64,000 bases of DNA, taken from positions 1 through 64,000 of the IMG/VR virus record IMGVR_UViG_3300027917_000019, one strand, 5' to 3'. Below, piece by piece: positions 820-32,336 of the stretch; within the stretch, counting starts at the first letter, position 1, and every line of letters starts with the position of its first letter. A model generated the notes under the pieces. It did no database searches and was not told the origin of the DNA. It saw nothing but the letters and a program-made list of their open reading frames with translations. Made by a program: the position numbers and the translations under genes. Origin of the DNA: a virus.

Positions 820-1956
820 TGCCGGGGCGGTATCGATCCACGTTAGAAAAGCAGGCCAGGGATTCCCTTCCCATAACCCGCGCAGAATGCGTGATTAGAA
901 ACCGTGTTTGATTGTCAATGGAAAAACCCCGACTGCAAACCAGGATACAGGGGCGGCCCGTCCACCTGGCGACCATCGGGGAATCACTGAACAAATGGCC
1001 CCACCGTTTTTTACCACCCTGTCAAAAAACGCCAAGGGGCGCCAGGGTCGCGGGGCCGGCCGGAGCCGGGCTGGCGAGCACCCCTATTCGGGGGCCGGAG
1101 CCACCCCAAACCTCTGCAGCACCCGTGCCAGCGCCAAATTCCCTAATGATTTCAAGCACTTACGAGCGGCCCGTAAGTATGCGGAATCATTGAGGAATTT
1201 GGGCATGACCTAAGTATGCGGAATCATTGAGGAATTCGGGAAACTACTGCGCTTTAGTTCAGTGTCTTGTGAACAAAGGTTTACAGAAGGCGTGTGAACA
1301 AAGGTTTACGAGCCAAATTCCCTAATGATTTCAAGGGTTTGCATGACCATACATCCTAAGTATGCGGAATCATTAGGGAATTCGGCCCCATGCGAGCTCG
1401 CGGGCGACAAATTCCCTAATGATTTCAAGGGTTTAGATATATGGTCACGTAAGTATGCGGAATCATTAGGGAATTTTGACCTTACCCTCCGCGCGCCCGC
1501 ATGCGAGAGGGCCGAATTCCCTAATGATTTCAAGGGTTTAGATGTATGGTCACGTAAGTATGCGGAATCATTGGGTTTTTGGCCCTACGCGCGCGTGCGC
1601 GCTCGCCCAGCCGCAGCGAATTCCGTAATGATTTCGGGGGTTTAGATGTATGGTCACGTAAGTATGCGGAATCATTGAGCTTTTCAGCTGGGGTCTAGAG
1701 ACCCCAGGCGGGGTCGGCTGACCCCATATAACTTTGCATGAATTAAGCTAATTCATGGGGACAAGTAGCCCCAGTGAGCTAAGTATGCGGAATCATTGAG
1801 CTTTTTGGTGGAGACTTTTGTACCCACCCGTAAACCCTTGAAATCATTGAGCTTTCGGCAAACACTGCACAAATGTTCAGGAAAACCGCCGGCCCGGGGA
1901 GCTGGCGCCGAATTCCCCAATGATTTCGCATACTGAACAAAATACTGAACAAAACC

Positions 1957-2547
1957 CTGAACAAGTGTTCAACGCTAAGTATGCGGAATCATTACACTTT
2001 TCGGTTTCAGCGAGCTAAACCCTTGAAATCATTGAGCTTTCGGCGATTGATCCAGATCAACCGCGCCGGCCGGCGTTTTACTGAACCTTTGTTCAGGCTA
2101 ATCCGCTAAGTACTTGAAATCATTGCACTTTTTAAGGGTATACCCCGAAAACCTCAATGATTTCGAGCACTTACCGTAACACTATAATCCAGTGTCACTG
2201 TAACCCCGCCGCGCGGCCGTGACACTGAACACTTGTTCAGTAGGGTGTAAAAATACACTCTCACTGTAACCACGGCGCGCGGCCGAAACCTGGAAAGTCT
2301 GGAATGGCCCTATGTGACCCTATGTGACCCTATGTGACCATACATGCGAGTGACCATACATGCGAGTGACCATACATGGCCCTATGTGGCCCTATGTGAC
2401 AGCCTGTCACACCCTATGAAAAGTTTGCAGAGCAGCCCCGAATTCCGCAGTGATATCAAACACTTACAAGACCCTTTCCCGAATTCCTCAATGATATCAA
2501 GTACTTAGAATTCTGCACAAATACTGGATCTTTGAACATTTGTTCAG
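1957..2547. promoter_or_regulatory. Four GAAC-N4-GTTC palindromes
   Basis: CTGAAC-AAGT-GTTCAA (1957-1972), CTGAAC-CTTT-GTTCAG (2081-2096), CTGAAC-ACTT-GTTCAG (2225-2240) and TTGAAC-ATTT-GTTCAG (2532-2547). Half-sites (CTGAACA) also occur near 1932-1950. The pattern matches the Gram-positive LexA box GAAC-N4-GTTC. LexA binding is inference. Confidence 0.55.
2306..2400. repeat. Tandem short repeats CCCTATGTGA / CCATACATG
   Basis: Three CCCTATGTGA-like units are followed by two copies of CCATACATGCGAGTGA, then CCATACATGG and two CCCTATGTG units. The same CCATACAT word appears inside the spacers of the AATCATT repeats and again at 2925-3333. Confidence 0.75.
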
Positions 2548-2924
2548 GTATATATGGCAACTTTTCTTGAATGATTCCGCATACTTACATGTATGGCAAT
2601 CTCTAAGGCCCGGAAATGACCCCCCCTGGTACCACCCTACCAGCGACCCCCCGAAACGCCTTAGACGGGCTGCTAGGGCCCTTTACGTGGAAAGTAGTAT
2701 TCTACCCTTGTATTCTACTAGGTGACTAATCTAACCCCTCGAAATCACTACGCTTTTCCCGAAACTGGCCAATCGGCCTAACGAATTCCACAATGATTTC
2801 CTACGCCGCGCCGCGTCAATTCCCTAACCCCGCGATATTACACACTTTTTCGACGTACCCCTCCATAACTACGCGAAATCATTACCCTTTTCCCGATACC
2901 CCTATATGGGGACTATGATCCCAA

Positions 2925-3333
2925 TGTCAGACCATACGGACATCCGTGTCATGCGTGTCAAAAAGTACACGGACATCTATGTCATAGTAACCTACTATTC
3001 ACAGTGTAAACCCTTGTTCACGTATGATCCAAATGTCGTACCATGTATGGTCAAACCACGACATTTATGTCATACCCCCTATATGGGGTGGCTACTGGCA
3101 TAGCCTGTACAAAGGTTCAGAGTATCCATATGGGGACTACCCACCCCGTGCCCGCGTGACCATATGTGACCATACATGGCCCTATATGGCCATACCCGCG
3201 CGTGACCATGCGTGACGCTACGTGACCATACGTGGCCATGCCCCTATGTGACCATACATGGCCCTACGCGCGCCCCTGGGGGCTGCCCTACGTGACCCTA
3301 TGTGCCGTGACCATACATGTAGTGTATGGTCAC
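2925..3333. repeat. TGACCATACAT repeat field ending in an 11-bp palindrome
   Basis: Many variants of GTGACCATACATG, CCCTATATGG and GACCATACG lie in both orientations. At 3307-3333 GTGACCATACA and TGTATGGTCAC form a perfect 11-bp stem with loop TGTAG. No supported reading frame covers the region. Confidence 0.7.
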
Positions 3334-3490: not shown

Positions 3491-3724
3491 TCAGAAAATT
3501 AATTCAGAATTTTCGTAGAAAAGGTTCAACTCTATATTGAAGAGGTAGTAGACCAGAATCCTGATAACACCCCTCTCATAGTTCGAAAGACACCCGTTGA
3601 GACTCACTAGCTGGTCAGCCTCTACTACTAGCTGTCTTTGAAGGTCATCTACGTTCAGGAGCAGACGACCATCGCAGCTATCTTGACCAAGCCAACCTTC
3701 ACAGTAGTATTCGTATTCAGTCAT
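3491..3724 (-). CDS. Tandem-array small protein, member 21 (77 aa)
   Basis: This is the last gene of the leftward operon. It carries the family pattern: N-terminal YEYYC..W, a central LVVE box, then a YERxV..LxxYLFN helix. It has the longest N-terminal spacer of the left-end members plus an extra tail. It shares 1 nt with the preceding gene. Function is unknown. Confidence 0.75.
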   Translation of the reverse strand: MTEYEYYCEGWLGQDSCDGRLLLNVDDLQRQLVVEADQLVSLNGCLSNYERGVIRILVYYLFNIELNLFYENSELIF

Positions 3725-3915
3725 TAGTGTCCACAGTCGACATCAAAGAGATAATCAATCAGAAATCGTAGAGCACTCCTTTCGTAGTTCTCACGATGCC
3801 GTTTATAGAATGCTACTTGAAAAGCCTCTACGACTAGCTGCTTTTCAAGAGTCTCGTACAGGTATCGCAGCTCATACCTCACGTAGCTTTCACAAAAGTA
3901 TTCGTAGTCACTCAT
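3724..3915 (-). CDS. Tandem-array small protein, member 20 (63 aa)
   Basis: It shows the full family pattern: YEYFC at the N-terminus, KQLVVEAFQ in the middle and YERSALRFL..YLFD at the C-terminus. It abuts member 19. Close in length and sequence to member 19, it is probably a recent duplicate. Function is unknown. Confidence 0.78.
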   Translation of the reverse strand: MSDYEYFCESYVRYELRYLYETLEKQLVVEAFQVAFYKRHRENYERSALRFLIDYLFDVDCGH

Positions 3916-4107
3916 TTAGATTCCGCAATCTATATCGAAGAGGTAGCGGATCAGAATCCGGATGACGTTTCTTTCAAAGTATCTGTGATACCTTTTAAGC
4001 GTGATCAGCTGCGAAGGCTCTATTACTAGTTTGTTTTGTAGGACTGGTATTAGGCGCTGAAGTGTGTAATCTGACCAAACTGCACAAAGGCGTTCATATT
4101 CAGTCAT
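3916..4107 (-). CDS. Tandem-array small protein, member 19 (63 aa)
   Basis: Family pattern YERLC..W, NKLVIEPSQL, FERNVIRILIRYLFD, ending DIDCGI (member 20 ends DVDCGH). It overlaps the end of member 18 by 8 nt, suggesting translational coupling. Function is unknown. Confidence 0.78.
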   Translation of the reverse strand: MTEYERLCAVWSDYTLQRLIPVLQNKLVIEPSQLITLKRYHRYFERNVIRILIRYLFDIDCGI

Positions 4108-4321
4108 GGTTCACTTCGACGGGGACGGGATAGTACTTTGGGAGTGTGGTATCGAAGAGATATTGAACTATGAGCCAGACGACGTTTCTCTCGTAACACT
4201 CAAGACCAAACTGAAAACGCATTAGCTGATCTTTCTCTATGACTAGTTGATTCTCGTTTTCAACTAATTCGTACTCTACCCAGTGTGCGCAGTAGAACTC
4301 GTAGTCAGTTTCCCATTTCAT
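4100..4321 (-). CDS. Tandem-array small protein, member 18 (73 aa)
   Basis: Family pattern YEFYC..W, NQLVIEKDQL, YERNVVWLIVQYLFD, followed by a proline-rich tail. The start has the best ribosome-binding site of the array (TAGGAG, 4 nt before ATG), so translation may re-enter here. Function is unknown. Confidence 0.8.
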   Translation of the reverse strand: MKWETDYEFYCAHWVEYELVENENQLVIEKDQLMRFQFGLECYERNVVWLIVQYLFDTTLPKYYPVPVEVNHD

Positions 4322-4342
4322 AGGACTCCTAAACGGGGTGGT

Positions 4343-4573
4343 TCATCCTCGATACTCATACCAGTCGCGTGCGCCCGTAGCTGATACTTTCACGTCCCAG
4401 AAGAATAGAACTAGGATATATATGACGTGAATCTCCCAGGACCTGATATCAGCGTAAAGCCTTCTTCGTTCTAGACCTTCTTCTAGGACTAGATTGTCCT
4501 TGAGAGCTTCTAGGTCTTGTTCTATCCAGTTTTCGTAGTAGGACTTATATTCGTAGTACTTATATTTAGACAT
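4343..4573 (-). CDS. Tandem-array small protein, member 17 (76 aa)
   Basis: A divergent member: tyrosine-rich N-terminus, DNLVLEEGLE box, WEIHVIYILVLFFWD helix (FWD in place of LFD). A 21-nt gap separates it from member 18. Function is unknown. Confidence 0.75.
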   Translation of the reverse strand: MSKYKYYEYKSYYENWIEQDLEALKDNLVLEEGLERRRLYADIRSWEIHVIYILVLFFWDVKVSATGARDWYEYRG

Positions 4574-4584
4574 AGATTACGACA

Positions 4585-4797
4585 TCAGCGTTGGCTTAAG
4601 TAGTCTGGGACGTTGAAAGCGCCGTATGCGTTGACGTCCCAGAGGTACATAACTAAGAGCCATATAACACCTCTCTCAAAGTTCCCGACGTTACTTACAA
4701 GCCATGCTACTTGATTAGCCTCTACAACTAGTTGGCCTTCAATGGCATTAAGAGGGTGGTTTACCCAACCTTCGCAGTGGTACTCGTATTCAGTCAT
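4585..4797 (-). CDS. Tandem-array small protein, member 16 (70 aa)
   Basis: MTEYEYHCEGW resembles the start of member 21. It has the GQLVVEANQV box and FERGVIWLLVMYLWD helix. It overlaps member 15 by 8 nt. Function is unknown. Confidence 0.78.
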   Translation of the reverse strand: MTEYEYHCEGWVNHPLNAIEGQLVVEANQVAWLVSNVGNFERGVIWLLVMYLWDVNAYGAFNVPDYLSQR

Positions 4798-5008
4798 TCT
4801 GATGATATTTCCAGTATTCGTCCAAAGTAACGTCTATATTTGCATTAAAGAGGTAGTAGATTAGAACGAGGAGTACGTGGAGTTCAAAGTTGTTAATATC
4901 ACTCGTAAGGAGTGCCCATTGACCAGGCTCTATTACTAGCTGTTTTTCAACGACTCTTACGTCGTCTCGTATCCAGCGTTGGTAATAAGGTTTGTATGTT
5001 AACGTCAT
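4790..5008 (-). CDS. Tandem-array small protein, member 15 (72 aa)
   Basis: MTLTYKPYYQRWI start, KQLVIEPGQW box, FELHVLLVLIYYLFN helix. It is closely similar to member 14 at the N-terminus (local duplication) and overlaps it by 4 nt. Function is unknown. Confidence 0.78.
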   Translation of the reverse strand: MTLTYKPYYQRWIRDDVRVVEKQLVIEPGQWALLTSDINNFELHVLLVLIYYLFNANIDVTLDEYWKYHQND

Positions 5009-5232
5009 GGTATGTTGTTCAAGAACTGGTCTTCAGTGTAGTCTGAAATGTATTCAGCAACTGTAATATCGAAGAGGTAAGAAAACAGACAGTAGAGGAC
5101 TTGGCGTTCAAAACACCTAATATCATGCCGGAGATCCGCTAGGTCGTCGTGCTCTATTACTAGACCACATTTGATTATATCTAAGTGGTTTTCTATCCAG
5201 CGTTGATGGTAAGATTTGTATGTTAGTGACAC
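5005..5232 (-). CDS. Tandem-array small protein, member 14 (75 aa)
   Basis: MSLTYKSYHQRWI start, CGLVIEHDDL box, FERQVLYCLFSYLFD helix, acidic tail. It overlaps member 15 by 4 nt. Function is unknown. Confidence 0.78.
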   Translation of the reverse strand: MSLTYKSYHQRWIENHLDIIKCGLVIEHDDLADLRHDIRCFERQVLYCLFSYLFDITVAEYISDYTEDQFLNNIP

Positions 5233-5233
5233 A

Positions 5234-5428
5234 CTACTTCCAAAGATCTAGGTCTATATCAAAGAGAAACCGAACAACTGTAAATAGGGAATGTTTTTCA
5301 AAGTGTTTCTTATAGGATTTGATTACGGCCAACTCCACGGCTTCTACTACTAATTCATCGGCAGCACTCCATACATACCTTTGTAAGAAGGCGAGGTAGT
5401 CTTTGTTGTAGCTGTAACGAATTATCAT
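5234..5428 (-). CDS. Tandem-array small protein, member 13 (64 aa)
   Basis: DELVVEAVEL box, then FEKHSLFTVVRFLFD. The N-terminus is YNKDYLAFLQRYVW. It is separated from member 14 by 1 nt. Function is unknown. Confidence 0.76.
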   Translation of the reverse strand: MIIRYSYNKDYLAFLQRYVWSAADELVVEAVELAVIKSYKKHFEKHSLFTVVRFLFDIDLDLWK

Positions 5429-5443
5429 ACAGTATCTCCAGAC

Positions 5444-5635
5444 TTATATAGCCGTATCGAAGAGATACCAAACAAGACAAAACAAGGTATATGCTTCATA
5501 GTTTTTCTTGTAGTACTTAATTGTAGTCAACAAGTCTGTTTCTATCACCAAACTGTTAGAAGCTAAAGCTGTTTCTACAAGCTCCTGTAATTGGTCCTGA
5601 TAATAAGAGCTGTACCTAATCGCGTTATCGTACAT
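5444..5635 (-). CDS. Tandem-array small protein, member 12 (63 aa)
   Basis: NSLVIETDLL box, YEAYTLFCLVWYLFD helix. It has the same length and layout as member 13. Function is unknown. Confidence 0.76.
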   Translation of the reverse strand: MYDNAIRYSSYYQDQLQELVETALASNSLVIETDLLTTIKYYKKNYEAYTLFCLVWYLFDTAI

Positions 5636-5677
5636 GTCTAAGGCGCCTAAAGGATTGGAATTTAATCGGCATGAGTA

Positions 5678-5863
5678 CTATTCTCGTAGAAAACACAAAA
5701 AGTTGACGAAAAGTCGCACGATAGCTTCGTTACGAAGAGATAGTTCTTGTTTGATCCGAGACAATGCTTCTTCCTCTATGACTAGGCGCCCCTGGATCTC
5801 CCTTACGGAGCTTTTAAGCCACCACTCGTAATAGTTGTAAGAAAAACTACGTAGACCAGCCAT
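5678..5863 (-). CDS. Tandem-array small protein, member 11 (61 aa)
   Basis: GRLVIEEEAL box, but the final helix reads AIVRLFVNFLCFLRE and so lacks the usual LFD. A 42-nt gap follows. Function is unknown. Confidence 0.72.
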   Translation of the reverse strand: MAGLRSFSYNYYEWWLKSSVREIQGRLVIEEEALSRIKQELSLRNEAIVRLFVNFLCFLRE

Positions 5864-5868
5864 ATCTT

Positions 5869-6093
5869 TCAGATTCGAATTCGAATTCGATTATCAAACA
5901 AAAACAATACGAGGACTTGTATAACGTGCTGACTAAGCCAACGTTGATATGTTTCGAGGTTGTCCAATTGCTGTTCTTCTACTACCAATCCAGGAGATAC
6001 TATTTCAATCTCCATTTTTAACCACCTCTGGTAAACAGGGTCATACTGAAGGGGGAGTATTGAGGACCGCATGCGCTCCAACATGTTGTTCAT
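5869..6093 (-). CDS. Tandem-array small protein, member 10 (74 aa)
   Basis: PGLVVEEQQLDNL box and HVIQVLVLFLFD helix. The C-terminus NRIRIRI is encoded by a short ATTCGA repeat (about 5874-5890), a likely slippage site. It is joined to member 9 by an ATGA overlap. Function is unknown. Confidence 0.75.
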   Translation of the reverse strand: MNNMLERMRSSILPLQYDPVYQRWLKMEIEIVSPGLVVEEQQLDNLETYQRWLSQHVIQVLVLFLFDNRIRIRI

Positions 6094-6290
6094 TCGAACC
6101 CCGCAGGAAAGTATATGTGTTCACCAAAACAGAAGGAGAATACAACCCCAACTACGTGAATTTCATACCAATCTTTGCAGCTGTAGATACTATCTAATTG
6201 CTGTTCTTCTATTACCAACTGCGTAGAAGCTTGGTCGAGGTGCGCTGCTAGTACTCTTTTGTAGACACGCATGTTGGAAAGATAGTCCAT
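6090..6290 (-). CDS. Tandem-array small protein, member 9 (66 aa)
   Basis: TQLVIEEQQLDSI box (nearly the same as member 10) and IHVVGVVFSFCFG helix. I chose the ATG at 6290, 1 nt after the member 8 stop. A longer frame starting at 6338 would overlap member 8 by 47 nt. Function is unknown. Confidence 0.7.
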   Translation of the reverse strand: MDYLSNMRVYKRVLAAHLDQASTQLVIEEQQLDSIYSCKDWYEIHVVGVVFSFCFGEHIYFPAGFE

Positions 6291-6291
6291 A

Positions 6292-6510
6292 TTACCAGTC
6301 TGCTCCATAAGGCAGTTCACAACCAAAGAGAATGGCAACTACTTTCTTGATGTAAGCTTTTTCCAAATCACAACGCAACCCTACCAACATCCTTACCGTC
6401 GCATCTTCTACAACCAGCTGATATGAACATTCTTCAATGATGCTCTCAATACTCCTTTCAAGAATATTGTTATACCAACGTATTTGGTCAATGTCTACCG
6501 TGCCCATCAT
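6292..6510 (-). CDS. Tandem-array small protein, member 8 (72 aa)
   Basis: YQLVVEDATV box and AYIKKVVAILFG helix. The ATG at 6510 forms an ATGA overlap with the member 7 stop and is preferred to the TTG at 6519. Function is unknown. Confidence 0.72.
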   Translation of the reverse strand: MMGTVDIDQIRWYNNILERSIESIIEECSYQLVVEDATVRMLVGLRCDLEKAYIKKVVAILFGCELPYGADW

Positions 6511-6755
6511 AGCCACCAAGGATGGCCAGTAAAGTCTATGTTAGTATCGTTGAATAGGTATCGGAACAACATCATTACCAAAAGCCCATTTACATGCATA
6601 AGTGCCGATTGTATGTCAACAAGGTCTTTTTCTTCTACTGCTAGATAATCTTCTACCCTCTGCATTAGAAGGTTAAGATTCTCGACCTCTGTCTCCATTC
6701 GATACTGAATGATGCATACATCTATGTAAAAAGTAGCGTTGTTGTAGTCACTCAT
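6507..6755 (-). CDS. Tandem-array small protein, member 7 (82 aa)
   Basis: DYLAVEEKDL box and LLVMMLFRYLFN helix. The start MSDYNNATF at 6755 follows a GAGAAG ribosome-binding site, so the upstream TTG at 6764 is rejected. It has a longer N-terminal region than its relatives. Function is unknown. Confidence 0.74.
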   Translation of the reverse strand: MSDYNNATFYIDVCIIQYRMETEVENLNLLMQRVEDYLAVEEKDLVDIQSALMHVNGLLVMMLFRYLFNDTNIDFTGHPWWL

Positions 6756-6764
6756 ACTTCTCAA

Positions 6765-6944
6765 CTAAGGGCAAGTATCAAAGAGGTAGTAAATCAGAAC
6801 GCGAATGATATGTTTTTCAAAATTCTCTTTCTCTCTTTCAATAATCCTCAAAAGCCTCTTTTCTACTACCAGTGAGTCTTTGACTGCCTGCACGTCCTGA
6901 TTTAGCCAGTACTGATAGTGTGGGGAATATACCTCGTATTTCAT
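6765..6944 (-). CDS. Tandem-array small protein, member 6 (59 aa)
   Basis: A short gene that is easily missed. It begins MKYEVYSPHYQYW, has DSLVVEKRLL as its box and ends NFEKHIIRVLIYYLFDTCP, all typical of the family. Its ATG forms an ATGA overlap with the stop of member 5, which strongly supports translation. It is the smallest intact member. Confidence 0.78.
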   Translation of the reverse strand: MKYEVYSPHYQYWLNQDVQAVKDSLVVEKRLLRIIEREKENFEKHIIRVLIYYLFDTCP

Positions 6945-7153
6945 GAGTTTTCATCCAAGGTGCACAGGAAGTCTGCAACGCTCTGCACCCACCACTCCAT
7001 AGCGTGCTTGTGGAGGTTTCTGAGGCGTCTAACATCGGGTTGCTCTAGGACCAGCTGCTGACCGTTTAGGAGGCGGTGCGTGGCTTTTAGGGCCCTTGTT
7101 TCGTGAACTAGAGCCCACCGCACTGCAGTGCTGGCTGGGTCATAATCAGTCAT
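6941..7153 (-). CDS. Tandem-array small protein, member 5 (70 aa)
   Basis: QQLVLEQPDVRRL box, WWVQSVADFLCTLDE end. More divergent, with no LFD motif. It overlaps member 4 by 8 nt and member 6 by 4 nt. Function is unknown. Confidence 0.72.
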   Translation of the reverse strand: MTDYDPASTAVRWALVHETRALKATHRLLNGQQLVLEQPDVRRLRNLHKHAMEWWVQSVADFLCTLDENS

Positions 7154-7340
7154 TTAGTATTTTCTCAAGAAATTCAACAAAGATATATACCCACTCAGTA
7201 GCAATTGTTTCTCTACAATCCTCTATAAATTTCACTTGGCCCTGTTCCACGACAAGCACTGCTTTGAGTAGCACATGCCAGGTCTCTATTATCACTTGAT
7301 AACTGTGTATGATTTGTTTTCGTCGTGAGGAATAGTACAT
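7146..7340 (-). CDS. Tandem-array small protein, member 4 (64 aa)
   Basis: AVLVVEQGQVKFI box, TEWVYIFVEFLEKIL helix. It shares 1 nt with member 3. Function is unknown. Confidence 0.72.
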   Translation of the reverse strand: MYYSSRRKQIIHSYQVIIETWHVLLKAVLVVEQGQVKFIEDCRETIATEWVYIFVEFLEKILND

Positions 7341-7573
7341 TACTCTTCTCTAAGGTACTCAAGAACTCCTTGAAAAAGCGCAACCCATCCACGATTTATT
7401 AGTTCTTTATTAAACCGTAGGTCATTTATGTCAAGATGCTCAAGCGTCAATCGCCTACCGTTTTTTAACCTAGAAATATACTGAACGAGTTGGTCTTCTC
7501 TATCCGTCACCCAGTCAACGTTTCCAAACACAGGATGACCTCGATATACACCAATCTGTCGAAGTGTGCCCAC
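7340..7573 (-). CDS. Tandem-array small protein, member 3 (77 aa, GTG start)
   Basis: A distant member: RRLTLEHLDINDL takes the place of the LVVE box and GWVALFQGVLEYLREE the final helix. The GTG at 7573 has a weak ribosome-binding site, so the start is uncertain. Function is unknown. Confidence 0.62.
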   Translation of the reverse strand: MGTLRQIGVYRGHPVFGNVDWVTDREDQLVQYISRLKNGRRLTLEHLDINDLRFNKELINRGWVALFQGVLEYLREE

Positions 7574-7586
7574 AGCAATACCATAA

Positions 7587-7620
7587 GGCCGAATTGGGTA
7601 AGTGCAATCCCAATTCGGCC
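7587..7620. terminator. Perfect 12-bp hairpin inside the array
   Basis: GGCCGAATTGGG, loop TAAGTGCAAT, CCCAATTCGGCC, between members 2 and 3. No T-run follows on the minus strand, so it may be a processing or attenuation structure instead of a simple terminator. Confidence 0.6.
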
Positions 7621-7646
7621 CTTACATATACCCTCATAGGTATAGG

Positions 7647-7892
7647 CTACAGAAACAACCACTTAAGTAGATAGTACACTACTTGTTGTTCACCGAGTTT
7701 CGCATGTTCTGTACAAACACCTAGTGTTTCTAAATCAACATGCTCTGCAACCAGCTTATCATCGTAAGCTTCTACTCGCTCTTTAAGCGTAAGCTTCCTA
7801 GCACGCCAGGTAGTAATCCAGTATGACAACGAGTCGTCGAGCAGCGCATGGAGAATGGTTTGGCCATGCTTAGTGACGATAACCTTACTCAT
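7647..7892 (-). CDS. Tandem-array small protein, member 2 (81 aa)
   Basis: Extended basic N-terminus, then DKLVAEHVDLETL and QQVVYYLLKWLFL. It overlaps member 1 by 8 nt. Function is unknown. Confidence 0.72.
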   Translation of the reverse strand: MSKVIVTKHGQTILHALLDDSLSYWITTWRARKLTLKERVEAYDDKLVAEHVDLETLGVCTEHAKLGEQQVVYYLLKWLFL

Positions 7893-8097
7893 CTAAGCTC
7901 CACTCTAATATTTCCTGCAGCGCATATATCCACCGCTGATTAATGCACTCTTTTCCGTTCTCAAGCACCAAAAGATCATAGCCTTCTGTAACAAGCTGAT
8001 TTTCTACACGCACTACATTATCATGTAAATCTTGTGTGTAGTTAAGGGCCCATCGGGTCCAATAGCTTATCCATGCTAATCTAGGTTCCCTTTTCAC
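7885..8097 (-). CDS. Tandem-array small protein, member 1 (70 aa, GTG start)
   Basis: The first family member in transcription order. It has the NQLVTEGYDLLVL box and WIYALQEILEWSLDE end. The final EWSL recalls the WSLL tails of nearby proteins but is followed by DE. Function is unknown. Confidence 0.7.
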   Translation of the reverse strand: MKREPRLAWISYWTRWALNYTQDLHDNVVRVENQLVTEGYDLLVLENGKECINQRWIYALQEILEWSLDE

Positions 8098-8183: not shown

Positions 8184-8389
8184 AGCTTGGTAGAAAGCCT
8201 GCGATTGATATTCAGTGCAACAATACCCTCCAACACTGCAACAGTCGCAGACTCATATTCCTCATGAACCTGATAGTTCGTCTTGTCATCGATAGCTACA
8301 AGACCAATCTTCCCGTTTTCCTTCTCGATGATGTGTAGTGTGAAACTAGAAAGTGTTTGGTCTTCGCGCTTCTCTTCAGACTTTGTCAT
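8180..8389 (-). CDS. Hypothetical protein, 69 aa
   Basis: The ATG at 8389 overlaps the upstream stop as ATGA, so this start is preferred to 8401. It is charged at the N-terminus (MTKSEEKRED) and then beta-rich. It does not belong to the LVVE family. Function is unknown. Confidence 0.65.
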   Translation of the reverse strand: MTKSEEKREDQTLSSFTLHIIEKENGKIGLVAIDDKTNYQVHEEYESATVAVLEGIVALNINRRLSTKL

Positions 8390-8583
8390 AGTAGATTCCA
8401 TTCTCCGGCCTCCTCGTCGATGTATGGTCTAGTGTCCTTTGGAGGGACTTGAACCCATTTATATCCAAGCGCCGTTTTTTCAGTCTTGTGGTACGTAATA
8501 TTGAAAGTACTGGTGTTATAGTGATCAGGATTTCCCCAAGCTGCCGCGCTGTAATCAACACCGCCAATATAAAGGTCACTCAC
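8386..8583 (-). CDS. Hypothetical protein with C-terminal EWNLL tail, 65 aa
   Basis: The GTG at 8583 overlaps the upstream TGA (GTGA), preferred to the GTG at 8595. The body is beta-rich. It ends DEEAGEWNLL, a variant of the (E/D)WSLL tail found on four other proteins in this window. Function is unknown. Confidence 0.66.
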   Translation of the reverse strand: MSDLYIGGVDYSAAAWGNPDHYNTSTFNITYHKTEKTALGYKWVQVPPKDTRPYIDEEAGEWNLL

Positions 8584-8921
8584 AACAAGCTCCACTCTCC
8601 CTCTTCACTAGGGTCGTACAATTCAAGCTCTGTCAGGTCTACAAACGTAATAACCCCACGAGCTTCTACATTTACCCCAAAGTAGTTGCTGTCCACAGTA
8701 TATCCAGATCCATGGTCAGATACAGACGCTGTGTGCTTCTTAGCAACCAAGCGCTCTTCAGATTTCGTCCCATCCGGCCAGCGAACTTTTACTATCTGCC
8801 CCGCAATCAAGGTGATACCACGAGAACGAGACGCAGTACCTGCAGTTGATAGGCCCTCGCCGCTATAGGCGTAATAGATGTAGCCCCAATCATCGAACCT
8901 TTCAATCTTCCTATAACTCAC
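8580..8921 (-). CDS. Hypothetical protein with C-terminal EWSLL tail, 113 aa
   Basis: Beta-rich, with IVKVRWPDG and a glycine- and serine-rich centre, possibly a small SH3-like barrel. It ends PSEEGEWSLL. It is coupled by a 4-nt overlap to the next gene, which carries the related tail. Function is unknown. Confidence 0.68.
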   Translation of the reverse strand: MSYRKIERFDDWGYIYYAYSGEGLSTAGTASRSRGITLIAGQIVKVRWPDGTKSEERLVAKKHTASVSDHGSGYTVDSNYFGVNVEARGVITFVDLTELELYDPSEEGEWSLL

Positions 8922-9119: not shown

Positions 9120-9489
9120 CGTAAGCACCTTCCTGCACGTCGTCAAGAGGTTATGAAAGGGATCGTTTTGAAAACGAAGCATTCAAGGTGTAAACTAACA
9201 TCAGAATAGACCCTTAAATAAGTACTTGTCTGTGAATAGATCACCATTTCTAGCTTGTTTTCACAAAACGAGGTGTTAGAATGGTGCTGAAGACTGCTCA
9301 GAATGGCCCTATTTGGTGTTGACAGGGGTTATGGTAGTGCTTATTTGGTACCTAACTAGGTATTACGAGTACGTGGAGAGATCCGGGCTGGTCTGACGGC
9401 CTGAAATTATGCCCCGTGGGTATACCTATCTTGTATGCGGGCCGTTGTCCGGACCAAAATAGGGACAGACTTTAAAAGAGGGACAGTAC
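9120..9489. other. Divergent intergenic control region
   Basis: This lies between the leftward small-gene operon and the rightward genes. A sigma70-like site TTGACA-N17-TATTTG lies at 9319-9347 and a weaker TTGTTT-N16-TAGAAT near 9258-9285. I see no gene here and no clear leftward promoter. Confidence 0.5.
9319..9347 (+). promoter_or_regulatory. Sigma70-type promoter
   Basis: TTGACA, 17 bp, TATTTG. It faces the rightward genes beginning at 9490. The -10 box is imperfect. Confidence 0.5.
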
Positions 9490-9855: not shown

Positions 9856-10157
9856 TGGCTATTCGAGCAACGACACATTCACCCCGTAGGACTAATAAGC
9901 CTACCTCTAAGGATGTCGATGTAGTAAAGATGATCGTAACTCTACACTCTGGTGCTGAGTTTGAGGCTGTCGGCGGCCGTGACGACGCTATTGATTTTCA
10001 CAGGCGTTTCAAAAAGTGGGTAGACGGTCAAGTTCACAAAACAGATAACCACAAGATTGTATTCTTTGGTGGTATTTACTTTGCCGCGAATGCTGTCGCT
10101 GTATATTCTGCTGAAGATATGGATGGGAAGAAGGTAGACCTTGGCCCCGCACATTGA
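9855..10157 (+). CDS. Hypothetical protein, 100 aa
   Basis: A basic N-terminus (about 20 residues) precedes a compact alpha/beta region. The start overlaps the previous stop. The segment IASYNEEDMNGESV in the upstream protein resembles VAVYSAEDMDGKKV here, so the two may be distant paralogues. Function is unknown. Confidence 0.62.
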   Translation: MAIRATTHSPRRTNKPTSKDVDVVKMIVTLHSGAEFEAVGGRDDAIDFHRRFKKWVDGQVHKTDNHKIVFFGGIYFAANAVAVYSAEDMDGKKVDLGPAH

Positions 10158-10548
10158 TGTGCCTGAAGGTAAAGACGTAATAGACGTTTTCCACAAGTGG
10201 CACGCAAAGCTTGACAGTGAAAACAGAGAGATAATCTTCTCTGTATCTACACAATATTATTTGGAAGAAGGACAGGCTGATCTTCTTGACCCAGAAGATG
10301 AGACGAAGTGGACCAAGGTTTTGGTACTACCTTTTCCTAAGGATAATGTTGTAACCGAGAAAGGTGAGATGTTAGTCGGCGCGTCTGTTCCTACTTTCTT
10401 TGACACAGAACAGCTCAAAAAACGGTTCATCCCTATAGACGACTTTGTACAAGTCGTCTATAAGATGGTTGAACAGATAAACGCCGATTTAGAAAACGCA
10501 ATGCTATTGCAGCAAATGGAAGATAACGCTGAGTGGAGTCTTCTGTAG
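10141..10548 (+). CDS. Hypothetical protein with C-terminal EWSLL tail, 135 aa (TTG start)
   Basis: The TTG at 10141 has AAGAAGG spaced 6 nt before it. GTG at 10159 is the alternative. It is acidic, with a C-terminal helix ending MEDNAEWSLL. Function is unknown. Confidence 0.62.
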   Translation: MAPHIDVPEGKDVIDVFHKWHAKLDSENREIIFSVSTQYYLEEGQADLLDPEDETKWTKVLVLPFPKDNVVTEKGEMLVGASVPTFFDTEQLKKRFIPIDDFVQVVYKMVEQINADLENAMLLQQMEDNAEWSLL

Positions 10549-10595: not shown

Positions 10596-11030
10596 ATGAT
10601 AATAGTCAATGATTTCATATTTATCAAAGTGTTTCCAGACTTATTCTGGGCACAGTGTGGAGATGGTTGGTTACTGCTTGGGGCTGAGTCATTAGCACAA
10701 GACCCCCACATCCTAGCAGCGGTGACGTATGATTCTGAAGTTAAAACAGGAAGGTTTGTACATCTGGTAAAGGCAGACATGCGTCTGAAGGCTGACAAGA
10801 TTTCTGGCGATGACGTGTACTATTCAACAGGTCAAACAAGCCCTCGTGCTCTTATGACAACATATCCAGACTTTGTGTACATAGTACAAGCCGATAACAG
10901 TGATGATCTAAAAGGGCACATTCTAGAACTACTATTCAGGAGTGATGTTCCTACTCCTAGTGTACCTTCTGAAAAAGTAGACCGTCGCCCAAGTTTTGAA
11001 GATCTTGAGGGAGATTGGTCCCTTCTGTGA
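10596..11030 (+). CDS. Hypothetical protein with C-terminal DWSLL tail, 144 aa
   Basis: Begins MIIVNDFIFIKVF, mixed alpha/beta. The last residues are EDLEGDWSLL. No ribosome-binding site precedes the ATG, consistent with a leaderless transcript from the promoter at 10563. Function is unknown. Confidence 0.62.
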   Translation: MIIVNDFIFIKVFPDLFWAQCGDGWLLLGAESLAQDPHILAAVTYDSEVKTGRFVHLVKADMRLKADKISGDDVYYSTGQTSPRALMTTYPDFVYIVQADNSDDLKGHILELLFRSDVPTPSVPSEKVDRRPSFEDLEGDWSLL

Positions 11031-11556
11031 TCTTTCTTCACTTTCTTTCCTCACACCCATTGACAACCCTTGGTATTACCCCCAATTTAGATCAGACGGT
11101 TTAAGGGTAAGGCTTAATTCTCAGACTAAAGAGTTAGTAGTTATGTACGGTGAAGATATAGATGCTATTGACGTAGTAGACTGTGTATTCGAGTACTATG
11201 ATAAATACGGTAAGCGTATTACATTTGACGACCTAATAGAACTAGAAGACGACCAGAAATACGGTATAGTCGGTGTGTGGGTAAACTGGGTAGGAGAAGA
11301 AGTTATTACTACCACTTGGAATGGTGTACCTGTCTATCCTATAGAGGAGAAGGAAGGTCCTGACCCTCTCATCTTTGAGACTGTCTGTCATCGGGAAGAT
11401 CGGTACCGAAATATCATTCGTAGGTACTCTACACTGGATAGGGCTATAGAGGGGCATCGAACCGCTGTTTTGCAAGCAGGTGGTGATCCTGATTCAAATT
11501 ACGACAACATGCCTGACTGGATGCCTCCGTACTTCCTAGACTCGGATTTTTACTGA
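10996..11556 (+). CDS. Hypothetical protein of the W(D/N)W-GE family, up to 186 aa
   Basis: The start is uncertain: TTG at 10996 would overlap the previous gene by 35 nt, and the next ATG is at 11143. The C-terminal half (VGVWVNWVGEEVITT, later EGH, GGDPD, PDWMPPY) is homologous to the next two genes, which are shorter. Function is unknown. Confidence 0.6.
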   Translation: MKILREIGPFCDLSSLSFLTPIDNPWYYPQFRSDGLRVRLNSQTKELVVMYGEDIDAIDVVDCVFEYYDKYGKRITFDDLIELEDDQKYGIVGVWVNWVGEEVITTTWNGVPVYPIEEKEGPDPLIFETVCHREDRYRNIIRRYSTLDRAIEGHRTAVLQAGGDPDSNYDNMPDWMPPYFLDSDFY

Positions 11557-11557
11557 G

Positions 11558-11833
11558 ATGACTAACACATATGTTGCTCCCTCAGGGTATATACTTGTAA
11601 AAGCTTGGGTAGACTGGCTTGGAGAGACTGTGGTTGAAACTTCAAGGGCACGTGAAAAAGGAAGGTATATTACGTTTGTGTCTACAAAGAACGGGCCGAT
11701 AGGCCCTGTTGCTTTCTATGACACGCTTGAAGACGCCGAAAAGGGGCATGACCTTGAAGTTAAATCTCATGGTGGTGACCCCGAAGGTTTTTACCCTCGT
11801 CCAGATTGGTATATCAAACGAGTGTGTGGGTGA
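11558..11833 (+). CDS. W(D/N)W-GE family protein, 91 aa
   Basis: It carries VKAWVDWLGETVVET near the start and GDPEGFYPRPDWYIK at the end. It is a tandem paralogue of the next gene: 11605-11631 and 11915-11941 are identical DNA. Tryptophan-rich and probably beta. Function is unknown. Confidence 0.65.
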   Translation: MTNTYVAPSGYILVKAWVDWLGETVVETSRAREKGRYITFVSTKNGPIGPVAFYDTLEDAEKGHDLEVKSHGGDPEGFYPRPDWYIKRVCG

Positions 11834-11837
11834 ACTA

Positions 11838-12191
11838 GTGCCTTATTTTGATATCAACACTCTAGATATTCATAAGGACTATCTGTCTCCTACAGGTTAC
11901 CAAGTTATAAACGTTTGGGTAGACTGGCTTGGAGAGACTGTAATTGAGACTGTCTTTGATAGTGCTTCGAATGCCAGGATTGAGTACACTTCTGAGTATA
12001 CTCCTACCTTGTTTTACACGTATGTGGCTACACATAAGGGGGCTATAACTTCTCTTAATGATTACTTGACTGTGCAGGAAGCTAAGGACGGGCATGTTGC
12101 TTTAGTTAGGGCTCATGGAGGCAATCCTGAAGGTTTTTACCCTCGTCCAGATTGGTACATCAAAAGTGTCGCTAACATCGTTCGTTTTTAA
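11838..12191 (+). CDS. W(D/N)W-GE family protein, 117 aa (GTG start)
   Basis: Second copy of the family, with NVWVDWLGETVIET and GNPEGFYPRPDWYIK plus an insertion of about 25 residues in the middle. The GTG at 11838 follows the previous stop by 4 nt. A frame open from 11709 is only the extension of this one. Confidence 0.62.
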   Translation: MPYFDINTLDIHKDYLSPTGYQVINVWVDWLGETVIETVFDSASNARIEYTSEYTPTLFYTYVATHKGAITSLNDYLTVQEAKDGHVALVRAHGGNPEGFYPRPDWYIKSVANIVRF

Positions 12192-12985: not shown

Positions 12986-13657
12986 GTGTCCAGATGGTTG
13001 AATTTCTTAGGATTTCTGGTATTGGCCCTGTTTATCGAGGCATGCATACCAACATCCTTGAAACTAGATAGTGGTCCCATGCTGGTCCCTATAACGCAAG
13101 CAGGTTACCACTGGACTCCTGACCGCTTCCCTATTCCAGTATATGTACATCCGCAGATGGACCCTATCCGCAAGTTGGCTGTATTACTAGCCATAGACCA
13201 GTGGAACGAGTCTGTAGGTGGTGACGTGTTTGAGTACATAGACGCTCCTCCCAACTGGCCCATGTTTGAAGAGAACGGAGCGTTTACAGCATTGGGATTT
13301 GTTAGTGTGGAGGAAGGGCTTGTTGGTGTTGACCCAGATATGAACGTACAGCGTAATGCGTGGGCAGCTGTTTCTCTCAGACCTGGAAGGTACGAACTTC
13401 TAGGTGAGATTCATGGGGCTAGGGTTATGATTGGTACACACGTATCCGGTCTAGAAGACGCCGCTCGGATCACATTCCATGAGCTTGGGCACTGTTTAGG
13501 CTTGGCACATGATGGAAATGATCGTACAAGCATCATGTACTATAGCGCCACTCTTTCTATGAGTCAGCATCTACAGGAAGAGGATTTGGCCTATGTTAGA
13601 CAACAAGTGGGGACTTGGACTGCTGTCGAGGTCTTCCGTGAGTCACTCCAACTCTGA
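12986..13657 (+). CDS. Metzincin-type zinc metalloprotease lipoprotein, 223 aa
   Basis: A lipoprotein signal peptide with a hydrophobic core and cysteine at residue 20 (LFIEAC-IP) precedes a matrixin-like domain. The zinc site HELGHCLGLAH lies near residues 166-176, with a downstream Met-turn (SIMYY). This predicts an extracellular, membrane-anchored endopeptidase of the M10 type. The GTG start sits directly at the predicted transcription start. Its target is unknown; it may modify the host surface during infection. A second lipoprotein protease lies at 29278-29988. Confidence 0.8.
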   Translation: MSRWLNFLGFLVLALFIEACIPTSLKLDSGPMLVPITQAGYHWTPDRFPIPVYVHPQMDPIRKLAVLLAIDQWNESVGGDVFEYIDAPPNWPMFEENGAFTALGFVSVEEGLVGVDPDMNVQRNAWAAVSLRPGRYELLGEIHGARVMIGTHVSGLEDAARITFHELGHCLGLAHDGNDRTSIMYYSATLSMSQHLQEEDLAYVRQQVGTWTAVEVFRESLQL

Positions 13658-13853
13658 GTTATGGCATTTGCTGTTTGATCTTCAAATTCTCGTAAACGGG
13701 CATTGTGACGTTACAACTACTCCAGAATACGATGATGCAGTAGAAGCTTTTGATCCAGAACATGATGAAAGATACAGAGCGGCCATGTTGAAGGCTCGGG
13801 AGGCTTGTCCAGCAACGATTGACGATGAGGAGGGAGATTGGAGCCTCCTCTGA
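13638..13853 (+). CDS. Hypothetical protein with C-terminal DWSLL tail, 71 aa
   Basis: The GTG at 13638 has GAGG at the right spacing and overlaps the protease end by 20 nt; a longer frame from 13593 is possible. It is acidic and helical, ending DDEEGDWSLL, the most conserved version of the shared tail. Function is unknown. Confidence 0.62.
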   Translation: MSHSNSELWHLLFDLQILVNGHCDVTTTPEYDDAVEAFDPEHDERYRAAMLKAREACPATIDDEEGDWSLL

Positions 13854-23545: not shown

Positions 23546-24973
23546 ATGCCGTCTCCAATTACAGACATAGATCGAAGTATTCGCAGACTCGAAGGTAAGG
23601 TTGTCATCAGAACAACCGCCCCTCTGGATATCTATGTGAACGGAGTTACTGGAGATGATAGTAACCCTGGCACTGCTGAAGCACCTCTAGAGACCATCGG
23701 TGCTGCATATCAACTGATTCCAGATCGTGTCTCGAACCGCGTGATTGTCCATCTTGGGCCACACAGTGGTGATGGGTACCGAATACCGCTTCTTCGTAAC
23801 AGATTTACGGACAAGAACATCTATGTGGTGGGTGAAGTAGACACGGTTCTATACACAGGTACAGTGGCTGCGGGCAGTGATGACCACACGCTGGTAGATA
23901 GCGTTGGTGGTTTCACTACCGACGAGTATATGACCAGATCTATTGAGATCTTGACAGGAGCAGCTGCCGGTGATCGTCGTACTGTATTTGGACACGATGC
24001 TACTACCATAACGCCTCTAGCTCAGTTTAGTGCCGCCTTGCAGGCTGGAGATACGTATAGAATCTTCGAACCTGCTGTGATTGTACGAGAACCCGGCCCT
24101 GATAAGAGCATCTACTGGGCAGAGGGTGTTCGTGGTAGCTCTACTGGAAAGCATGATCTTTATACTGGAATCTTCTTTGTAAACCTGACTGTTTCTTTGT
24201 ATAACATTCTAGGAGACCAGAACTTAGTCAATACTAACAGTGTAACTGGGTTTTATGGTTGTAACACTCGCTACAACGGTCTAGCGTCGGTGGGTAGCCA
24301 CGATTCAGTTTTCCTGGCTGGTATGGACCAAAATATCAATGGAGTAGGTGCAGTAGCTCTTGGTCCTGAAGCGGATTTTGACTTGCCCAGCAGAACAAGC
24401 TGGAGGGGTTGGGGTTTGGCTTATGCTCAAGACAATCTAGATGATAGTTACATGGCTGGAGGATTCCACAGTGGCTATTGGATTTTTGGAGACTTGGGGC
24501 ACATCATCAGGTCGGGGAACGTCACTATCTGGAACTGTAGGTGTCCAGGTAGGATTGGTGTACTAAACAACTCTGAAGACCCTGTTATCATTCGTATTTA
24601 CGGGGTCTATAACAAGATTCCTGCTGAAATTGAAAACTACCTGGATGTTGATGGTCCTAATGTTGATTTGACTTTGAGCGTCGTCAACATCACTACTACA
24701 ACTAACCCAGGAATTAAGGCTCAGCGCGGCGCACATGTGTATATAGCAGGGGCTACAACAATCGATTCTGGTTCTCAAATAGGGATTTTGGCACAAACCG
24801 GTGCTGTTGTAACGTTTTCAGGTGCTGCAGCCCCAACTATTACTACTACTGGAAATGATACTGAAGTTGTAAATGCCGAGGGTGTTAATGCAACTCGTGC
24901 CATGTCTGGATACGACGCGCTAGGTAAACATATTGCTGCTCCAGATGGAACTGTAATCAAGAGAGTGTTCTAA
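23546..24973 (+). CDS. Beta-helix tail protein, copy 1, 475 aa
   Basis: N-terminal anchor ITDIDRSIRRLEG is followed by LDIYVNGVTGDDSNPGT, the usual start of right-handed beta-helix (pectate-lyase-like) phage proteins, then parallel beta repeats. The C-terminus ATRAMSGYDALGKHIAAPDG is shared with the next gene. Probably a receptor-binding or depolymerase protein. Confidence 0.75.
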   Translation: MPSPITDIDRSIRRLEGKVVIRTTAPLDIYVNGVTGDDSNPGTAEAPLETIGAAYQLIPDRVSNRVIVHLGPHSGDGYRIPLLRNRFTDKNIYVVGEVDTVLYTGTVAAGSDDHTLVDSVGGFTTDEYMTRSIEILTGAAAGDRRTVFGHDATTITPLAQFSAALQAGDTYRIFEPAVIVREPGPDKSIYWAEGVRGSSTGKHDLYTGIFFVNLTVSLYNILGDQNLVNTNSVTGFYGCNTRYNGLASVGSHDSVFLAGMDQNINGVGAVALGPEADFDLPSRTSWRGWGLAYAQDNLDDSYMAGGFHSGYWIFGDLGHIIRSGNVTIWNCRCPGRIGVLNNSEDPVIIRIYGVYNKIPAEIENYLDVDGPNVDLTLSVVNITTTTNPGIKAQRGAHVYIAGATTIDSGSQIGILAQTGAVVTFSGAAAPTITTTGNDTEVVNAEGVNATRAMSGYDALGKHIAAPDGTVIKRVF

Positions 24974-26403
24974 TGGGTACCACAGACATAGACAGGCGTA
25001 TAGATATACTGGAAGGGCGTACTCTTCATTCGACCACAGGTACCCTTGACATCTATGTCTCTGGTGTAAGTGGAGATGACTCAGCCGCAGGCACTGAGAG
25101 TGCTCCTATTGCTACTATCGCTGAGGCTTACCGACGGACCCCTGACATAGTTAGAGATCCTGTTCGTATTCATTTGGGGCCTCATGCAGGTGCTGGGTAC
25201 GAGATTCCAACTTTTCAAAACAAGAAGCTGTATAACAACGTTTATGTATTCAGTGACGAGACTACAACACTTTCCACAGGTATTGCAGATGCGGGAGGTA
25301 GTGTAAACGCTCTTGTAGACACCGTTGGAGGGTTTACAGTAGACGAGCATCTTGGTGTCTCTATCGAGATCCTGACTGGTGATGCAGCCGGAGACCGTAG
25401 AATGGTGACAGCAAACACTGCTGACACTTTTACACCCTCTGCTCCGTTCAGTGCTGCTATTTCTGCTGGAGACACCTATCGTTTGTTTGAACCTTCTGTA
25501 GTAGTTTTCTGTGAAGAAGGATTACCAGCAACTCCTGGTTCTGGTTTGGTTGCTAAGAACGCAGGTAACTTCGGAAGACTTGGAGATTCCCTTTCTCCCT
25601 TTGGTATTGATGATGGTCGCGGGATGTTGGTGTTTGCTAACCTGATCTGGGACACTACATCAGTTGAAGGCGGTTTGGCTTCTTCTACTATAGCTTTTTG
25701 GGGGATAAAGATAACCGGAGATGATTGGCAGCCTATTTCTCAAGGTGATTCGCTAGTACTGATGGGAATGGATGTATCTCAACCGAGTGCGTTTGCCCCG
25801 ATGTATGATTTGGGAGCAAAAAGCAGCACAAGCTGGAAAGGATGGGGAGTTTCCCAAACCAACGCACCTGGAGGTATGTCATTCTTTACAAAAGCTAGTG
25901 GCTACATAATTTCAGGGCCTGCTGGAACGCTGGGAATTCAACAAAGTGCTCAGGTTGTCCTTTACGGGGGACGAATTCTAGCTGGACTTATTTCTTTTTC
26001 TCCCGGGCAATTGCCTAACCCACACAGCATGTTGATTAAGGGAGCGTCTGCATCACTTCCGTTCATAATAGACGGCAAAGTGACCCTACAAGGGCTTAAC
26101 GTAAAAGCACAGTTTCTCTGGTGTACTATAGATTCTGCTGAAGATGGTGTTGCTGTATTGGACGGTGCTGAGTGCAGGCTTGGGTCCACTACCATTACAG
26201 TGACTGGAACCAACGATGGTATAGTAGCTAGTACTCAAGGAAAGGTTACGTTTTCCAACGTAACTGTGAATGTGGCTACAGGTGTAGAGACTCGCGTAAC
26301 GGACGCAGAGGGTGTTGACGTTACTAGGACAATTGCTGCATACGATGCTAAAGGGAAGTACATTGCAGTCTCAGACGGTACTGTTATCCAAAGGGTAATC
26401 TAA
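24973..26403 (+). CDS. Beta-helix tail protein, copy 2, 476 aa
   Basis: Tandem paralogue of copy 1: the same anchor (TDIDRRIDILEG), LDIYVSGVSGDDSAAGT, and C-terminus VTRTIAAYDAKGKYIAVSDG. The middle is diverged, which suggests alternative receptor specificity. It overlaps copy 1 by 1 nt. Confidence 0.75.
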   Translation: MGTTDIDRRIDILEGRTLHSTTGTLDIYVSGVSGDDSAAGTESAPIATIAEAYRRTPDIVRDPVRIHLGPHAGAGYEIPTFQNKKLYNNVYVFSDETTTLSTGIADAGGSVNALVDTVGGFTVDEHLGVSIEILTGDAAGDRRMVTANTADTFTPSAPFSAAISAGDTYRLFEPSVVVFCEEGLPATPGSGLVAKNAGNFGRLGDSLSPFGIDDGRGMLVFANLIWDTTSVEGGLASSTIAFWGIKITGDDWQPISQGDSLVLMGMDVSQPSAFAPMYDLGAKSSTSWKGWGVSQTNAPGGMSFFTKASGYIISGPAGTLGIQQSAQVVLYGGRILAGLISFSPGQLPNPHSMLIKGASASLPFIIDGKVTLQGLNVKAQFLWCTIDSAEDGVAVLDGAECRLGSTTITVTGTNDGIVASTQGKVTFSNVTVNVATGVETRVTDAEGVDVTRTIAAYDAKGKYIAVSDGTVIQRVI

Positions 26404-32245: not shown

Positions 32246-32317
32246 GCCCTATTAGCTCAGTGGTAGAGCAGCGGCCTCTAAAACCGTGGTGGGTGGGTTC
32301 GAATCCCTCATGGGGCG
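32246..32317 (+). tRNA. Amber-suppressor tRNA, anticodon CTA
   Basis: Acceptor GCCCTAT/ATGGGGC, D-arm GCTC-AGTGGTA-GAGC, anticodon loop CTCTAAA with C:A at 31-39, T-loop TTCGAAT with one T:T mismatch in the stem, discriminator G, then CTA in place of CCA. Loop and C:A pair match the phage tRNA-Trp (CTCCAAA) except for one base, suggesting descent from it. Confidence 0.75.
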
Positions 32318-32336
32318 CTAAAGATGATATACTAAT

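What the first reader, a model, noticed from the sequence alone, without database searches (positions are those of the whole stretch)
3491..8097. Tandem array of 21 tiny paralogous genes of one unrecognised family
Twenty-one leftward genes of 59-82 aa share an N-terminal Tyr/Trp-rich patch, a central LV(V/I)E box and a C-terminal (Y/F)ER-V--L--YLFD helix. Many are linked by ATGA or 4-8 nt overlaps, including a 59-aa member at 6765-6944. Members differ strongly in sequence, so they are old duplicates kept under selection. Such diversification suggests binding to many host targets, for example inhibitors of different defence systems or a heteromeric assembly.
Basis: partly seen in the sequence, partly recalled or inferred. 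Interest (0 to 1): 0.87.

Follow-up and report, generated by a model that had tools for sequence, protein, structure and literature searches.

The report
Phage array of 21 tiny paralogous genes
A large, unclassified bacterial virus carries 21 tiny related genes in a row (and three more elsewhere) that share one predicted two-helix shape but differ almost everywhere on their surface; no relative was found elsewhere, and the best guess is that they are early weapons against different host proteins.

Summary
All 21 leftward ORFs at 3491-8097 belong to one family: in leave-one-out profile tests each beats 500 shuffles of itself (E 4e-6 to 5e-23). The ORFs cover about 96% of the interval and ten of 20 junctions overlap. 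Three more members lie at 142.3-143.0 kb of the same 165.8-kb phage record. The C-terminal YLFD box marks only one subtype; four of the five genes nearest the presumed promoter and the distal trio form a second, Trp-containing subtype. Codon-position identities (0.48/0.59/0.40) and the absence of broken copies point to purifying selection on the fold. AlphaFold2 predicts a helical hairpin for both subtypes (pLDDT 88 and 91), with a conserved core and highly variable surface. No homologue was found in Pfam, PHROGs, NCBIfam, PADLOC, PDB, SPO1, 80 related phage contigs or, by single-query scans, IMG/VR and GTDB. The phage is a distant environmental relative of SPO1 (capsid protein 43-45% identical). 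The array sits near the start of a 35-kb leftward arm opposite the late genes, a position like that of SPO1's host-takeover genes. Best reading: an early, tandem-duplicated family diversified to bind different host targets. Function is inferred, not shown.

The parts
3491..8097 (-). whole array of 21 paralogous small genes (three more members lie outside the window at 142,309-142,989 of the 165,819-bp record, minus strand)
7885..8097 (-). member 1 (GTG start), Trp subtype, 70 aa, ends LEWSLDE
7647..7892 (-). member 2, 81 aa; ends LLKWLFL, groups with member 7
7340..7573 (-). member 3 (GTG start), Trp subtype, 77 aa, weakest homology score of the 21
7146..7340 (-). member 4, Trp subtype, 64 aa
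6941..7153 (-). member 5, Trp subtype, 70 aa
6765..6944 (-). member 6, YLFD subtype, 59 aa, consensus-like; AlphaFold2 model: helices 9-21 and 29-56
6507..6755 (-). member 7, 82 aa
6292..6510 (-). member 8, 72 aa from ATG (75 aa from TTG at 6519)
6090..6290 (-). member 9, 66 aa from ATG MDYL (longer starts possible)
5869..6093 (-). member 10, 74 aa
5678..5863 (-). member 11, 61 aa
5444..5635 (-). member 12, 63 aa
5234..5428 (-). member 13, 64 aa
5005..5232 (-). member 14 (GTG start), 75 aa
4790..5008 (-). member 15, 72 aa
4585..4797 (-). member 16, 70 aa
4343..4573 (-). member 17, 76 aa
4100..4321 (-). member 18, 73 aa
3916..4107 (-). member 19, 63 aa
3724..3915 (-). member 20, 63 aa
3491..3724 (-). 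member 21, 77 aa
8180..9182 (-). context: four small non-family leftward genes between the array and the divergent intergenic region (9183-9489); two end in GEWNLL / GEWSLL

Best explanation
The array is an early-expressed accessory gene family of a lytic, SPO1-related environmental phage. One small helical-hairpin protein was duplicated in tandem many times. The copies kept a common hydrophobic core and the conserved LVxE turn while their surfaces diverged widely. Most likely each protein (probably a dimer or hetero-oligomer through the hydrophobic second half of helix 2) binds and inhibits or redirects a different host protein, such as a defence enzyme or part of the transcription, replication or division machinery. 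Shown here: the family, its two subtypes, the three distant copies, constraint on the fold, the predicted hairpin, the place near the start of a leftward arm, and absence from relatives. Inferred: lytic lifestyle, early timing, translational coupling, oligomerisation, and the host-directed function.
For: Leave-one-out homology of all 24 members. Helical hairpin predicted for both subtypes, pLDDT 88 and 91. Conserved core (E28 invariant; L25, V26, L54 at 90% or more) against surface positions with entropy above 3 bits. Codon-position identity 0.48/0.59/0.40 in the closer pairs. The leftward arm runs from about 140 kb through the record end to 9.2 kb, with negative GC skew, opposite the late genes; it carries ligase, AAA and VWA genes. 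The relative G004 holds the same arm with unrelated small genes at its start, and 80 relatives lack the family, so it is a lineage-specific accessory block. In SPO1 the early, mostly small host-takeover genes (26 genes) are clustered, and eight products slow host growth (PMC6873191). Phages are known to amplify anti-defence genes in tandem (PMC9391042, PMC13096335).
Against: No expression, toxicity or binding data. No homology to any known inhibitor or to SPO1 takeover proteins. The SPO1 module is not made of paralogues of one family. Few members have a recognisable Shine-Dalgarno sequence and no promoter stands out above chance, unlike the signals described for SPO1 takeover genes. The record shows no terminal repeat, so a place in a terminal redundancy cannot be claimed.
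Confidence: 0.4

Rival explanations
1. Heteromeric assembly: the paralogues are co-translated subunits that pack through the shared hydrophobic helix into a mixed oligomer or filament (a scaffold, ring or shell-like body inside the infected cell), each subunit specialised for one position.
For: Polycistronic order with 10 of 20 junctions overlapping; positions 46, 47, 49-51 and 53-55 of helix 2 are mostly hydrophobic, more than one hairpin needs; hairpins of this size usually oligomerise (general knowledge).
Against: A fixed assembly would be expected in close relatives too; 80 relatives lack it. Surface positions look little constrained. Three copies lie at the far end of the arm, about 27 kb away across the record ends.
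Confidence: 0.2
2. Arms race with one fast-changing target or one defence that senses phage proteins: the copies are variants of a single inhibitor or decoy, kept as a stock so that some always work, rather than tools for different targets.
For: Tandem amplification of one anti-defence gene is documented in T4-like phages (PMC9391042, PMC13096335). Similarity falls weakly with distance in the array, as tandem duplication predicts.
Against: Identities are mostly 20-35%, far beyond recent dosage amplification; the longest exact DNA match between any two copies is 16 nt.
Confidence: 0.2
3. Virion or ejected proteins: the family is packaged and injected, or is a set of minor structural pieces.
For: Small abundant paralogues occur among internal proteins of some phages (general knowledge).
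Against: The array is on the strand opposite to the structural genes (portal 46240, capsid 58295), and the family is absent from relatives that share the capsid gene.
Confidence: 0.08
4. Drift: a non-functional or marginal tandem expansion that has not yet decayed, possibly an accident of recombination next to the repeat-rich region at 1.1-3.4 kb.
For: The coding score of the array under the phage's own codon model is near zero; surface positions are highly variable.
Against: No stop or frameshift in about 1,490 codons despite 23% mean identity, codon position 2 > 1 > 3 identity and coherent core conservation.
Confidence: 0.05

Closest known systems
[quoted passage not shown]
   Same: Cluster of mostly small genes away from the late genes, in a phage whose capsid protein is a relative (43-45% identity); accessory, early-type position.
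   Different: SPO1 genes are not one family, are not detected by this profile, have promoters and ribosome sites typical of highly expressed genes (PMC6873191), run in both directions, and lie in a terminal redundancy that could not be shown here.
Tandem-amplified anti-defence genes of T4-like phages (tifA; SegB-driven amplification)
   Same: A small phage gene multiplied head to tail (PMC9391042, PMC13096335).
   Different: Those are recent segmental copies selected for dosage; here the copies are mostly 20-45% identical and are separate genes.
Two-helix hairpins in PDB (for example CHMP4B hairpin 4abm, designed oligomers 5j0i and 6dkm)
   Same: General helical-hairpin shape; best Foldseek scores.
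   Different: All E above 1; a hairpin this simple matches many folds, so no relationship is implied.

Membership tests
SPO1-type host-takeover module | Gene cluster located in the terminal redundancy | tested here: inconclusive
   No repeat between the first and last 20 kb of the record; assemblers collapse such repeats, and G004 suggests that the two record ends are adjacent in a continuous arm.
SPO1-type host-takeover module | Homology to SPO1 takeover proteins | tested here: not met
   Profile of 24 members finds nothing in SPO1 at E <= 10 in a whole-record search; only a 0.76 chance hit among its left-end ORFs.
SPO1-type host-takeover module | Strong early promoters and ribosome binding sites | tested here: inconclusive
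   Sigma-70-type promoter scan gives chance numbers and few members have a Shine-Dalgarno match; the host's signals are unknown and expression was not testable.
SPO1-type host-takeover module | Products act on host processes | not testable with these tools
   Needs expression in a host.
Known anti-defence or defence proteins | Match to a curated profile | tested here: not met
   PADLOC none at E <= 1; NCBIfam, Pfam and PHROGs only scattered single-member hits at E >= 0.014. PADLOC holds defence, not anti-defence, families.
One paralogous family (24 members in this phage) | Each member recognised by a profile of the others above shuffles | tested here: met
   0 of 500 shuffles reach the real score for any member; weakest are 7340 and the distal copies at 142,309 and 142,732 (about 13 bits).
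One paralogous family (24 members in this phage) | Same predicted fold in both subtypes | tested here: met
   Helix, LVxE turn, helix in both models.

The most novel reading that the evidence does not exclude
A virus-specific, antibody-like set: one two-helix scaffold multiplied into 24 versions with a fixed core and a free surface, each aimed at a different host protein, or combining through a shared helix into many mixed dimers.
Probability: 0.25. Interest if true: 0.85.

Novelty: new variant of a known kind. Interest (0 to 1): 0.62.

Why it matters
Phages are known to cluster small early genes against the host, but those clusters are normally unrelated genes. A phage that builds such a cluster from two dozen diverged copies of one tiny scaffold would show a natural way to make many binders from one fold, and would give a ready-made panel for finding host targets and defence systems.

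Tried and rejected
Weak database hits were followed and dropped: the tblastn hit in Bacillus phage SRT01hs lies inside a 612-aa protein; the hit in Staphylococcus phage Alsa_2 is partial and mostly outside annotated genes. A terminal repeat was looked for and not found. Searches of the 80 capsid-sharing contigs, SPO1, IMG/VR (six scans with family queries, one with the neighbouring gene 8580-8921, one with the capsid) and GTDB genomes (one scan with a family member, one with the capsid) found no further member; the pattern-based scans only reach close relatives, so distant members may exist. Transmembrane nature was considered: the highest 19-residue hydropathy is 1.64 and most are below 1.4, so integral membrane proteins are unlikely though not excluded. 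Tree support is too low to order the duplications. Literature searches for a described phage array of this kind found none, in an open-access library only. Alignment-based scans failed for lack of a conserved 7-10 residue stretch.

Full report
What was checked. The 21 ORFs exist as described on the minus strand. They cover about 96% of 3491-8097, and ten of 20 junctions overlap by 1-13 nt, several by the ATGA type. A profile made from 20 of them recovers the twenty-first every time, at E (Z=1) from 4e-6 to 5e-23, while none of 500 shuffles of each sequence reaches its score. Mean pairwise identity is 23% and the best pair 45%. Chance and composition are therefore excluded.

The family is larger than reported. 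The window is the first 64 kb of a 165,819-bp virus record. Searching the whole record with the profile found three more members in tandem at 142,309-142,989, minus strand, each supported against shuffles. Two subtypes exist. The downstream members mostly end in (Y/F)-L-(F/W)-(D/N). Members 6941, 7146, 7340 and 7885 near the upstream end of the array, plus the distal trio, have a Trp in helix 2 and endings such as LEWL; the tree puts these seven together with 81/76 support, but its bootstrap had not settled. Across all 24 the Glu of the LVxE box is the only invariant residue.

Coding and selection. Identity by codon position in the closer pairs is 0.48, 0.59 and 0.40 for positions 1, 2 and 3, the order expected when protein sequence is conserved. 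No family remnant with a stop or frameshift was seen between the genes. Similarity falls weakly with distance along the array (Mantel r -0.23, p 0.007), which fits old tandem duplication; the longest exact DNA match between two copies is 16 nt, so there is no sign of recent duplication or conversion. The array fits the phage's average codon usage poorly (scores near zero in frame, strongly negative in other frames).

Structure. AlphaFold2 gives a helix, an LVxE turn and a long second helix for member 6 (pLDDT 88, pTM 0.68) and two long helices for a Trp-subtype member (pLDDT 91, pTM 0.71). Hydrophobic positions recur with helical period in both helices (peak 95 degrees). Core positions are conserved; many others exceed 3 bits of entropy. 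The second half of helix 2 is hydrophobic on most sides, which suggests a further contact, within an oligomer or with a target (inference). Foldseek finds nothing below E 1 in viral models or PDB; a hairpin is too simple to place by shape.

The phage. The capsid protein at 58295-59746 is 43-45% identical to those of the closest SPO1-like phages, and the clade is well represented in environmental contigs. The genome has a rightward arm with structural genes, 38 predicted tRNAs and a tmRNA, and a leftward arm from about 140 kb through the record ends to 9.2 kb with negative GC skew, carrying ligase, AAA ATPases and VWA proteins. The middle of the record (84-136 kb) was searched with the profile but not read. 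In the relative G004 (169 kb) genes of the corresponding arm run in one direction from 118 kb to at least 148 kb and the ATPase homologue lies at 161.7 kb on the same strand (148-161.7 kb not read), so the two ends of our record are probably neighbours in the real genome. The array lies right behind four small genes at the start of this arm, and the distal trio lies near its far end.

Distribution. None of 80 contigs that share the capsid protein, nor SPO1, has a match (with the Trp-subtype profile gave only a stop-containing chance match). G003 and G004, which are long enough to include the arm, have other small genes there. Many of the other contigs are short fragments, so their silence says little. 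Six IMG/VR scans and one GTDB scan with family queries found nothing, and tblastn of four members against 50,697 phage records gave only chance hits. Pfam, PHROGs, NCBIfam and PADLOC give only isolated hits at E >= 0.014. Pattern scans reach close relatives only, so the family may exist elsewhere in diverged form.

Interpretation. Place (start of the non-late arm), size, acidity of most members (net charge down to -9), accessory distribution and a conserved core with a free surface all fit a host-directed early family, in a position like that of the SPO1 host-takeover cluster (PMC6873191). It is not a member of that module by homology, and its promoter and ribosome-site signals are weak. Early timing and host targets are inference. 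Heteromeric assembly and a one-target arms race remain open and would be separated by pairwise multimer prediction and pull-downs.

Limits. Host unknown; no expression data; terminal redundancy could not be tested; low tree resolution; start codons of members 7-9 uncertain.

Noticed in passing
window 1133-2900: Non-coding stretch with about 20 copies, in both orientations, of a motif around TAAGTATGCGGAATCATTGAGG; TATGCGGAATCATT with up to one mismatch occurs 10 times here and once elsewhere in the genome. Candidate origin or regulatory region.
   Followed up: partly
window 2295-2420 and 3147-3315: Tandem repeats of 10-bp period built from CCATACATGG / CCCTATGTGA, close to one helical turn, and five copies of a TGAAC..TTGTTCA-like palindrome at 1866-3022.
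   Followed up: partly
8386-8595 (-), 8580-8921 (-), 10141-10548 (+), 10596-11030 (+), 13593-13853 (+): Apparently unrelated small proteins on both strands share the C-terminal tail (E/D)W(S/N)LL; one small gene of relative G004 ends in EWSLLD. Possibly a sorting, interaction or degradation tag.
   Followed up: partly
window 7573-7647: Inverted repeat GGCCGAATTGGG / CCCAATTCGGCC between members 2 and 3, without a T run: a possible attenuator or processing hairpin.
   Followed up: no
window 11143-12191: Another tandem set of three paralogues (VWVNWVGEEV / AWVDWLGETVVET / VWVDWLGETVIET, ending in PDWY or PDWM), so tandem duplication is common in this phage; likewise two tandem paralogues at 23546-26403.
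   Followed up: no
window 32246-32318: tRNA called Pyl with CTA anticodon among 38 tRNAs, plus a tmRNA with tag ADNAALPLAA; a suppressor tRNA reading TAG is possible.
   Followed up: no
L133 12562-13532 (relative G004): Three tandem paralogues in the relative's corresponding arm ending in GWxxSxxC, a different family from the array.
   Followed up: no
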